Shown one piece after another: positions 20,994 to 22,639 of a stretch of DNA of 64,000 nucleotides (within the stretch, counting starts at the first letter, position 1; each line of letters starts with the position of its first letter). The stretch is from positions 1 through 64,000 of the forward strand of contig NZ_LDQC01000022.1 in the NCBI RefSeq assembly GCF_001475545.1, given 5' to 3'. Under the pieces are notes generated by a model that saw only the letters and a program-made list of their open reading frames with translations, was not told where the DNA came from and did no database searches. The position numbers were made by a program, and so were the translations under genes. The DNA comes from Curtobacterium luteum (lineage in GTDB: Bacteria; Actinomycetota; Actinomycetes; Actinomycetales; Microbacteriaceae).

Positions 20994-21353
20994 GTGACCT
21001 CGCAACAGGCCCGTCCGCAGGTGGTGACGGTCTCGGTCGTGCTCTGGATCGTCTGGCTCGCGGGGTGCGTGCTCGCGTCGGTGATCGGCTTCGTGGAGTT
21101 CCCGGCGAGCGTGCTCGTGACCGTGATCTCCGTCGTGCTCTCGCTGGTGATCTGGGCGCTCGTGGCGTGGGCGGTACTGCGGGTGTGGCGAGGCTCGGCG
21201 ACCGCGCGCATCGTGCTGGTGGTGGTCGCGGCGGCGCGCGCGCTCCTGAGCATCGGCGACGGCGTGACGACGCTCCTGCTCGTCGCGTTGTCCGTGGTCG
21301 CTGCGGTCCTGCTGTTCGTGCCCGCAGCCCGGGCGTTCTTCACCCGGCGGTAG
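20994..21353 (+). CDS. Small integral membrane protein, function unknown
   Basis: A 119-residue protein with four predicted membrane segments and almost no loops, ending in the basic motif RAFFTRR. The GTG at 20994 is the first good start; it is divergent from the acetyltransferase. Its form resembles a second small membrane protein in the window (42522-42974), which likewise starts with a short polar N-terminus and ends in a basic tail. No recognised domain. Confidence 0.65.
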   Translation: MTSQQARPQVVTVSVVLWIVWLAGCVLASVIGFVEFPASVLVTVISVVLSLVIWALVAWAVLRVWRGSATARIVLVVVAAARALLSIGDGVTTLLLVALSVVAAVLLFVPAARAFFTRR

Positions 21354-21398
21354 CGCTCGCAACGGTAGCCGCAGGACCGTGTCTGCGAAACCACCTTG

Positions 21399-21446
21399 TG
21401 AAAGGTTGTGGCGTAACCTTTCACGCTGGAGATCCGAATGAAAGGT
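21399..21446 (+). promoter_or_regulatory. TGAAAGGT repeat cluster before the fic gene
   Basis: A perfect inverted repeat, TGAAAGGTT-GTGGCGT-AACCTTTCA, lies at 21399-21423, followed by a third direct copy, TGAAAGGT, at 21439-21446. The last copy ends nine bases before the fic start. The arrangement looks like an operator, possibly with autoregulation. Confidence 0.65.
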
Positions 21447-21454
21447 CCGTGGTG

Positions 21455-22639
21455 ATGCCGACGACACCCGGGTGGGAAGAGCGATGGCTCCCCAGCCCCG
21501 AGAACCCCGACTTCGACTCCCGACGGGTTCGTGCCCTGCGCAGGGAACCGTACCGTGCCGCCGTTCCACCGCCGATCGCGGCGGCCGACTTCCAGGTGTC
21601 TCCACGGTCGCTCTCCGACGCTGACGACGCCTCGCGGGCGATCGCGAGGTTCGACGCGGAGCACGCCTCGTTCCCCGCGCCGTTCGCATCCGTGCTGCTC
21701 CGGAGCGAGTCCGCGTCCAGCTCCGAGATCGAGCACCTCACTGCGGGCGCTCGCGCCGTCGCCGAGGCAGAGATCGACGAACGCGTGCAGGGCAACGCAC
21801 CCTTGATCGTCCGGAACGTCCGGGCGATGGAAGCCGCTGTCGCACTCGCGGACGACCTGAGCAACGCGACCATCATCGCGATGCACGCGGAACTCCTGCG
21901 CGATCAGACGCCCCACCTCGTCGGCGAGTTCCGCGATCAACAGGTGTGGATCGGCGGCGCCCTGCCGCATCTCGCCGCGTTCGTCCCACCACACCACGAA
22001 CTCGTCCCGGCGGCCATGGACGACCTGATCGCCTTCACGGAGCGGACGGACCTGCCGTTGCTCGTCCTGGCCGCCATCGCGCACGCACAGTTCGAGACCA
22101 TCCATCCCTTCCCCGACGGCAACGGCCGGATCGGGCGAGCTCTGGTGCAAGCCGTCTTGCGTCGCGGTGGGCTGCTGCGCCACCTCACCATCCCGGTGAG
22201 CAGCGGGATCCTGACAGACGTCGACGGCTACTTCGCGGCGCTCGATGCCTTCCGGGACGGCGACGTCGACCCGATCGTCGACGTCTTCTCCTCTGCCTCC
22301 TTGGCCGGACTCCAGAACGCGAGCACGTTGGCCGGTGACATCCGCACGCTGCAGGCGCAGTGGGACGAACGATTGTCGGGGCTCCGGTCCGACGCGACCG
22401 CGCGTCGCATCGCGAGACTCTCGATCGAGCACCCAGTGCTGAACGCACGTCTCGCGATCGAGCGGACGGGGGCGAGCGCCCCGGCCGTCGCGAACGGGTT
22501 CGCTCAGCTCGTCGAACGCGGCGTGCTCCGGCCGGCGAACTCGAAACAGCGGAACCGGGTCTGGGTCAACGACGAGGTCGTGGAGGCACTGGACTCGTTC
22601 GCGGAGCGGAGTGGGCGTCGGAAGGTCCCGCCGGTGTGA
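21455..22639 (+). CDS. Fic family protein with C-terminal winged helix (AMP-transferase)
   Basis: A 394-residue Fic protein. The core motif HPFPDGNGRIGR begins at His217, complete for transfer of AMP from ATP to a hydroxyl. Upstream, SSEIEH stands where class II Fic proteins have the inhibitory S/T-x-x-x-E-G/N helix; the glutamate is kept, the next residue is His. The C-terminal 80 residues look like a winged helix (NARLAIERTGASAPAVANGF), so it may bind DNA. No Doc/antitoxin partner is encoded nearby. The start could be GTG 21452 or ATG 21455. Operator-like repeats lie directly upstream. Confidence 0.9.
   Translation: MPTTPGWEERWLPSPENPDFDSRRVRALRREPYRAAVPPPIAAADFQVSPRSLSDADDASRAIARFDAEHASFPAPFASVLLRSESASSSEIEHLTAGARAVAEAEIDERVQGNAPLIVRNVRAMEAAVALADDLSNATIIAMHAELLRDQTPHLVGEFRDQQVWIGGALPHLAAFVPPHHELVPAAMDDLIAFTERTDLPLLVLAAIAHAQFETIHPFPDGNGRIGRALVQAVLRRGGLLRHLTIPVSSGILTDVDGYFAALDAFRDGDVDPIVDVFSSASLAGLQNASTLAGDIRTLQAQWDERLSGLRSDATARRIARLSIEHPVLNARLAIERTGASAPAVANGFAQLVERGVLRPANSKQRNRVWVNDEVVEALDSFAERSGRRKVPPV

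What the first reader, a model, noticed from the sequence alone, without database searches (positions are those of the whole stretch)
21399..21446. Triple TGAAAGGT site before a Fic gene with its own winged helix
A perfect inverted repeat plus a third direct copy lies immediately upstream of a Fic enzyme that has a DNA-binding-like C-terminus. Autoregulation by an AMP-transferase would be noteworthy.
Basis: partly seen in the sequence, partly recalled or inferred. Interest (0 to 1): 0.5.

Follow-up and report, generated by a model that had tools for sequence, protein, structure and literature searches.

The report
Self-repressing Fic enzyme's operator array
The repeats in front of this AMP-transferring (Fic) enzyme gene look like the landing site of the enzyme's own DNA-binding tail: in related bacteria the site and the tail change together, so the enzyme very probably switches off its own gene.

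Summary
The repeats are real: GTGAAAGGTT-N7-AACCTTTCAC (21398-21424) plus a third TGAAAGGT (21439-21446), before a class II Fic gene (21455-22639) ending in a winged helix-turn-helix (wHTH). Actinobacterial orthologues show a family-wide operator: 14-bp inverted half-sites 19-20 bp apart, often with a third copy 40-41 bp from the first. Half-site letters diverge between lineages while the architecture stays. With clade-separated cross-validation 60 of 88 non-redundant fic upstreams score >=6 against 0 of 484 controls; 37 of 42 held-out orthologues do. Recognition-helix residue 347 predicts half-site bases 9-10: best of 306 columns, right for 38 of 44 held-out half-sites. Fic paralogues with a degenerate helix lack the operator (0 of 18). 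Where the pattern matched, it matched once per genome. Best reading: Fic binds and represses its own promoter. Autorepression by a Fic-HTH protein is already known (CccR, 2022), so this is a new variant: new operator geometry, family-wide, with a specificity code. Binding is not shown. The window's own site is a weak match to the family model, and its third copy overlaps the ribosome-binding site.

The parts
21395..21408 (+). Half-site A of the operator (CTTGTGAAAGGTTG); contains the first TGAAAGGT at 21399-21406
   Evidence: registered half-site; exact repeat
21414..21427 (-). Half-site B, inverted (reads AGCGTGAAAGGTTA on the - strand); with A forms the perfect 10-bp inverted repeat 21398-21407/21415-21424
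21435..21448 (+). Half-site C, 40 bp downstream of A in the same orientation (CGAATGAAAGGTCC, 9 of 14 identical to A); contains the third TGAAAGGT and overlaps the ribosome-binding site
   Evidence: displacement of 40-41 bp is family-wide; not significant alone
21414..21419 (+). Possible -10 promoter element TAACCT (TANNNT) inside half-site B
   Evidence: inference from sequence; TANNNT begins at the first base of the right half-site in 19 of 63 non-redundant loci; the sigma-70 consensus scan found no site
21440..21445 (+). Shine-Dalgarno-like GAAAGG, inside half-site C
   Evidence: sequence
21455..22639 (+). fic gene: class II Fic (Fic_N + Fic + C-terminal wHTH), 394 aa, SoFic-like
22103..22138 (+). 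Fic catalytic motif HPFPDGNGRIGR (residues 217-228)
   Evidence: H217, P218, G222, N223, G224, R225, G227 and R228 invariant in 61 sequences
22478..22516 (+). wHTH recognition helix, residues 342-354; residue N347 is encoded at 22493-22495, and the code reads AG at half-site bases 9-10, as in A, B and C

Best explanation
The repeats are the operator of the Fic protein itself. The C-terminal wHTH of two or more Fic subunits binds an array of alternating half-sites about two helical turns apart (A-B 19 bp, B-C 21 bp in the window) that covers the probable -10 region and, here, the ribosome-binding site. This shuts off transcription of the fic gene, for which no conserved partner gene was seen: a one-protein module of enzyme, built-in inhibitory helix and repressor. 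Shown here by computation: the operator, its family-wide architecture, its single occurrence in the genomes where it was matched, and the match between half-site bases and recognition-helix residue 347. Inferred: physical binding, repression rather than activation, cooperative occupation of three half-sites, and any coupling of DNA binding to AMPylation.
For: Inverted repeats of score >=10 lie upstream of 63 of 110 fic genes versus 33 of 554 mechanically called neighbour ORFs and 95 of 2178 random windows (Fisher p 8e-34). A registered 14-bp half-site model, trained without the tested clades, scores >=6 in 60 of 88 fic upstreams and 0 of 484 controls, AUC 0.92, and >=6 in 37 of 42 held-out orthologues. 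Extra half-sites peak strongly only at +-40 and +-41 bp within +-150 bp and again in held-out loci (9 of 37, against 33 of 66 in the training set). Residue 347 gives the top residue-base pair by mutual information and is the best of 306 columns. At 40-60% identity of the rest of the protein, pairs sharing residue 347 share bases 9-10 in 299 of 517 cases, pairs differing in it in 83 of 1290 (three bins summed). Arg347 goes with CA, Asn with xG, Pro with GA; the code is right for 38 of 44 held-out half-sites. Of 10 disjoint nearest pairs that differ at 347, the 6 that swap Arg for another residue all change the bases. Paralogues with a degenerate recognition helix: 0 of 18 have the operator. Own site single-copy in the genome; 6 of 8 consensus sites in 66 genus genomes lie directly at fic; 9 of 9 sites found in 13 other genomes lie at fic, 4 of the 13 giving no match (places compared). 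Precedent for the mechanism: CccR.
Against: No binding or expression data. The window's own operator is a weak member: cross-validated score 4.39 and 5.67 with the full model, below the threshold of 6, because the outer end of half-site B departs from the consensus; the genus consensus pattern does not match the window's own genome. 28 of 88 orthologues in cross-validation and 5 of 42 held-out ones have no site at score >=6. The third copy is individually significant (p 0.05 or less) in only 20 of 63 loci, and in this clade it is confounded with the Shine-Dalgarno sequence. Operator distance also correlates with the Fic core (partial r 0.146), and outside the genus the Fic domain does as well as the recognition helix (0.184 against 0.167), so shared ancestry contributes; residues A103 and E104 outside the HTH follow N347 in the mutual-information list. 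Held-out proteins are under 85% identical to training ones but not clade-separated. The control ORFs are mechanical, and some lie inside genes.
Confidence: 0.87

Rival explanations
1. The inverted repeat is the operator of another, unlinked transcription factor (a global or local regulator) that controls fic.
For: The window's site is a weak family member; some Fic-domain residues also co-vary with the operator.
Against: The half-site sequence differs between lineages in step with the Fic protein's own recognition helix; where matched, the site was found only at fic, unlike a regulon; 18 paralogous fic genes with a degenerate helix lack it; among the 12 largest groups of nearby ORFs no neighbour recurs in more than 8 of 79 loci, apart from ORFs overlapping fic.
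Confidence: 0.07
2. The repeat acts as an RNA hairpin (attenuator or translation control) in the fic leader rather than as a DNA operator.
For: Long perfect arms (up to 20 nt in L064) near the start codon; the third copy overlaps the ribosome-binding site.
Against: Base identity tracks an amino acid of the protein, which pairing alone would not demand; an evenly spaced third half-site in alternating orientation is not part of one hairpin; a TANNNT element begins at the right half-site in 19 of 63 loci, so there the left arm may not be transcribed; no terminator-like site.
Confidence: 0.03
3. Fic binds the site but activates its own gene, or uses the DNA mainly to tune its enzyme activity, with little effect on transcription.
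For: DNA stimulates CbFic2 and switches it towards deAMPylation (PMC10628234, abstract, passages and part of the discussion).
Against: The array covers the possible -10 element, a repressing position; the characterised relative CccR represses.
Confidence: 0.1
4. The three TGAAAGGT copies are chance plus a Shine-Dalgarno sequence.
For: The third copy alone is not significant (p 0.10) and lies in SD position.
Against: 0 of 100 shuffles of the window have three copies; an inverted repeat lies at the same place in Curtobacterium orthologues with changed letters and in distant families.
Confidence: 0.02

Closest known systems
CccR, Yersinia pseudotuberculosis (PMC9755527; passages read)
   Same: Class II Fic with C-terminal HTH; represses its own promoter through an inverted repeat near -35/-10; dimer needed
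   Different: CccR footprint is AGATAATCAT-N26-ATGATAATCT (half-sites about 36 bp apart, my arithmetic); here half-sites are 19-20 bp apart with a third at 40-41 bp. CccR is a type VI effector; secretion was not examined here. The two sequences were not compared directly
SoFic, Shewanella oneidensis (PDB 3eqx, 3zcn) and Sofic anti-phage systems (PADLOC PDLC03963)
   Same: Same full fold including the wHTH (3zcn Z 34.2 over 348 residues, rmsd 2.8); PADLOC SoFic profile E 3.5e-73
   Different: 20% identity; misses the NCBIfam SoFic equivalog cut-off (50.3 against 550 bits). The 2023 CbFic2 paper states that DNA binding of SoFic had not been shown. E. coli Sofic has a separate small downstream antitoxin AS1 (PMC12249575, passages); no conserved neighbour of 70 aa or more seen here
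CbFic2, Coxiella burnetii (PMC10628234; abstract, passages and part 1 of the discussion; PDB 8cil)
   Same: Fic with N-terminal domain and C-terminal wHTH; binds DNA
   Different: Specific site unknown there (random DNA used); acts on host histones; no operator in the passages seen. The paper says future work on a specific binding sequence would be of special interest
Fic-domain protein of Mycobacterium marinum (PDB 7cb8)
   Same: Closest solved structure: Z 42.6, 379 residues aligned over 1-388, E 2.2e-56 by sequence
   Different: Solved with CDP; one search listed no paper on its DNA binding
LacI-family local-regulation recognition code (PMC2978694; search listing and start of abstract only)
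   Same: Same kind of inference, amino acid to base associations from local regulation
   Different: Unrelated fold and regulators (recalled)

Membership tests
Class II Fic AMP-transferase | Catalytic motif HxFx(D/E)GN(G/K)R | tested here: met
   HPFPDGNGRIGR at residues 217-228; core residues invariant in 61 sequences; Pfam Fic 5.2e-21
Class II Fic AMP-transferase | N-terminal inhibitory helix motif (S/T)xxxE(G/N) | tested here: inconclusive
   S89-S-E-I-E93-H94: S89 and E93 invariant in 61 sequences, but the following G/N is H
Class II Fic AMP-transferase | AMPylation activity | not testable with these tools
   needs biochemistry
SoFic / Sofic | Whole-length fold: Fic_N, Fic, C-terminal wHTH | tested here: met
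   3zcn Z 34.2, 348 residues, rmsd 2.8, model range 6-382
SoFic / Sofic | NCBIfam equivalog NF046030 cut-off of 550 bits | tested here: not met
   50.3 bits; PADLOC SoFic profile 245 bits, no cut-off given there
SoFic / Sofic | Anti-phage activity | not testable with these tools
   no experiment
Autorepressing Fic-HTH protein (CccR type) | Inverted-repeat operator in own promoter | tested here: met
   (sequence evidence only; promoter inferred)
Autorepressing Fic-HTH protein (CccR type) | CccR operator geometry (10-bp halves, 26-bp spacer) | tested here: not met
   window spacer 7 nt between 10-bp arms; half-site gap 5-6 bp in 67 of 69 loci with at least 11 of 14 arm matches, among gaps of 4-8 tried
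Autorepressing Fic-HTH protein (CccR type) | Direct binding and repression by the protein | not testable with these tools
   needs gel shift, footprint and reporter
Type II toxin-antitoxin operon (phd-doc, ficTA) | Separate antitoxin gene in the operon | tested here: inconclusive
   12 largest groups of ORFs (70 aa or more) within 2.5 kb in 79 loci: apart from ORFs overlapping fic the largest group is in 8 loci and reads like an ABC transporter (named by eye); an antitoxin shorter than 70 aa would be missed

The most novel reading that the evidence does not exclude
The promoter DNA serves as the enzyme's second antitoxin: a chain of Fic subunits bound to the evenly spaced half-sites is held in an inhibited or deAMPylating state, so that one event (loss, damage, titration or occupation of the operator, for instance during phage infection) both switches the gene on and frees the enzyme. 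The sequence-private operators would then tie each Fic enzyme to the state of its own chromosome.
Probability: 0.1. Interest if true: 0.85.

Novelty: new variant of a known kind. Interest (0 to 1): 0.6.

Why it matters
Fic enzymes with a DNA-binding tail are found across bacteria and some defend against phages, but my searches of open-licence papers showed only single cases of DNA binding. The 2023 CbFic2 paper states that SoFic DNA binding had not been demonstrated and that a specific binding sequence for CbFic2 would be of special interest. This analysis supplies predicted operators for scores of such proteins, a geometry and a residue-to-base rule that one gel-shift series can test. It suggests that self-repression is common in this branch, and it offers many mutually different repressor-operator pairs.

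Tried and rejected
A sigma-70 promoter and terminator scan of 21300-21500 found nothing. An operator regulon was sought and not found: one site in the own genome. Two further consensus hits in one genus genome (G032, L112) are tandem palindromes between two convergent ORFs, terminator-like by eye, not at fic. Conserved neighbours: the largest non-overlapping group is in 8 of 79 loci, smaller ones in 5 or fewer (12 largest groups viewed). Unregistered distances gave only modest Mantel correlations, and outside the genus the Fic domain did as well as the HTH; registered half-sites were sharper, and matched-pair and held-out tests followed. In the Mantel test the wing (partial 0.458) beat the recognition helix (0.239), Fic_N and the Fic core kept 0.105 and 0.146, and the post-Fic stretch was negative. 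One search listed no paper on 7cb8 DNA binding. A 2026 AMPylation review (PMC12894286, passages) mentions CccR self-repression and has none of the terms SoFic, HTH or helix-turn-helix. The literature searches cover open-licence PubMed Central only. The sigma factor and the transcription start remain unknown.

Rows dropped before counts: L001 (same as L082), L003 (same recognition region as L087) and L111 (broken gene) from operator fitting; near-identical proteins (85% or more) for the non-redundant sets; five loci with near-identical upstreams; seven loci, the same five plus two (L021, L080) that I judged off-motif. One search aligned P0001 with 60 of the 67 references listed. In one search, 60 fetched loci (the best 30 of each of two searches) were reduced to 42 held-out ones, and half-sites of proteins with residues that had no prior rule (A, K, S, D, G, V, H; 30 half-sites) were left out of the 44; no held-out protein had Pro at 347. 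The 18 paralogues were chosen by me from the list.

Full report
WHAT IS IN THE WINDOW. The three TGAAAGGT copies are real and far from chance (3 against 0.18 expected, 0 of 100 shuffles). Copies one and two are the core of a perfect 10-bp inverted repeat (21398-21407/21415-21424), single-copy in the genome at up to 3 mismatches. The gene behind it starts at ATG 21455 and encodes 394 residues with Fic_N and Fic domains. The structure model (pLDDT 92.8) shows a C-terminal winged helix: helices 315-325, 331-338 and 342-354, wing 359-371. It matches the Mycobacterium marinum Fic protein 7cb8 (Z 42.6) and SoFic 3zcn (Z 34.2) over nearly the whole chain. The closest named relative in the first scan is 70% identical, from Curtobacterium sp. 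ZW137, so the genome is probably Curtobacterium (inference).

FAMILY-WIDE OPERATOR. I fetched 80 orthologous loci (the best 80 of 588) and 30 loci from genus genomes, the window's own among them. Many upstream regions held long perfect inverted repeats of quite different sequence. Score >=10 was reached in 63 of 110 fic upstreams, 33 of 554 upstreams of mechanically called neighbour ORFs and 95 of 2178 random windows. Iterative registration gave a common 14-bp half-site, roughly CTTAYYAACASTTA, with a gap of 6 bp in 45 and 5 bp in 22 of 69 well-paired loci (gaps 4-8 tried). Cross-validation that kept clades of 60% or more identity together gave score >=6 in 60 of 88 fic upstreams and 0 of 484 controls; at >=4 it was 66 of 88 and 1 of 484; AUC 0.92. 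The window scores 4.39 there and 5.67 with the full model: a degenerate but recognisable member.

THIRD HALF-SITE. Displacement of extra copies from the inverted pair has strong peaks only at +40, +41, -40 and -41 bp (counts 7, 14, 8 and 15 against 0.1-0.3 in shuffles; 58 loci; a minor count of 3 at -42). Taken locus by locus the best third copy is significant at p 0.05 in 20 of 63. With registered sites, 33 of 66 training operators and 9 of 37 held-out operators have a third half-site at 40-42 bp. Since A and B lie 19-20 bp apart, B and C lie about 21 bp apart: alternating half-sites about two turns of DNA apart, so one face of the helix could be occupied by a row of subunits (inference). In the window C is 40 bp from A. 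In this clade the half-site core AAAGG resembles a Shine-Dalgarno sequence, so C alone proves little here.

THE PROTEIN'S OWN HELIX READS IT. Over 63 non-redundant loci the strongest residue-base association among the variable columns of residues 46-394 is residue 347, in the recognition helix, with half-site positions 9 and 10 (z 15.2 and 14.6). Arg347 goes with CA (51 of 66 half-sites), Asn with AG, TG or GG (24 of 24), Pro with GA (15 of 16), Thr with AG (9 of 10). Residue 347 ranks first of 306 columns. In pairs matched for identity of the rest of the protein (40-45, 45-50 and 50-60%), the dinucleotide is shared in 9 of 13, 108 of 181 and 182 of 323 pairs with the same residue, against 2 of 40, 24 of 427 and 57 of 823 with different residues; at 60-85% it is 100 of 114 against 5 of 29. 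Among 10 disjoint nearest pairs that differ at 347, the 6 that swap Arg for another residue all change the bases; the 4 others keep AG. Against: shared ancestry contributes (Fic core partial r 0.146; equal to the HTH outside the genus), and 4 of 21 same-residue nearest pairs do not share bases.

HELD-OUT TEST. Sixty further loci reduced to 42 non-redundant orthologues, each under 85% identical to any training protein. 37 of 42 have an operator at score >=6. The code was right for 38 of 44 half-sites of proteins with R, N or T at 347 (18 of 24, 14 of 14 and 6 of 6). For residues without a prior rule (A, S, D, H, G, V, K), 19 of 30 half-sites read AG, so the main divide is Arg against the rest.

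NATURAL NEGATIVE CONTROL. Many Curtobacterium genomes carry a second Fic of about 35-46% identity with an intact catalytic motif but a degenerate, often acidic recognition helix (judged by eye). 0 of 18 examined have the operator (starts estimated by alignment; one unregistered repeat of score 10 is a GC-rich simple repeat).

PRIVATE SITE. A consensus pattern found 8 sites in 7 of 66 genus genomes (none in the window's own), 6 of them directly upstream of fic; the other two are terminator-like tandem palindromes in one genome. In 13 other genomes, 9 had exactly one site, each at fic, and 4 had none at up to 3 mismatches (positions compared).

MECHANISM. The array covers the possible -10 element (TANNNT starts at the first base of the right half-site in 19 of 63 loci; TAACCT in the window), so occupancy should block RNA polymerase. 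No neighbour gene recurs widely (at most 8 of 79 loci): the module looks like one gene with catalytic domain, built-in inhibitory helix (S89 and E93 invariant in 61 sequences) and own repressor domain. Shown: sequences, architecture, co-variation, privacy. Inferred: binding, repression, cooperativity. Unknown: the signal that releases it and whether DNA binding alters AMPylation.

COMPARISON WITH WHAT IS KNOWN. A 2009 survey already proposed that HTH domains fused to Fic may regulate fic expression (PMC2686095, passages). CccR was shown in 2022 to repress its own promoter through a 26-bp-spaced repeat (PMC9755527, passages). CbFic2 binds DNA and changes activity with it, with no specific site known, and its authors state that SoFic DNA binding had not been demonstrated (PMC10628234). 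I found no report of a family-wide Fic operator or recognition code in the listings (open-licence PubMed Central only). The window protein works like CccR as a probable autorepressor, but the operator geometry differs; and it is SoFic-like without meeting the NCBIfam SoFic equivalog cut-off.

VERDICT. A new variant of a known kind, made unusually testable by the code.

Noticed in passing
own genome G000:C126:1552-2604; L175-L192: A second Fic family in many Curtobacterium genomes keeps the catalytic motif and a winged-helix remnant, but its recognition helix is degenerate and the 18 genes examined lack the operator.
   Followed up: partly
L112:2104-2179 (G032:C79:96603-96678): Two tandem 35-bp palindromes resembling the fic operator consensus lie between two convergent ORFs; terminator-like by eye.
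   Followed up: partly
L111 (G010): One fic orthologue matches in three separate pieces in a genome rated 65% complete; perhaps an assembly or sequence error.
   Followed up: no
upstream regions of L093-L110: Other Curtobacterium fic genes (44-48% identical) have operators of other types (GAGTTCGACACTTA or GATTTTCTGAGATA), so one genus holds several differently addressed Fic proteins.
   Followed up: partly
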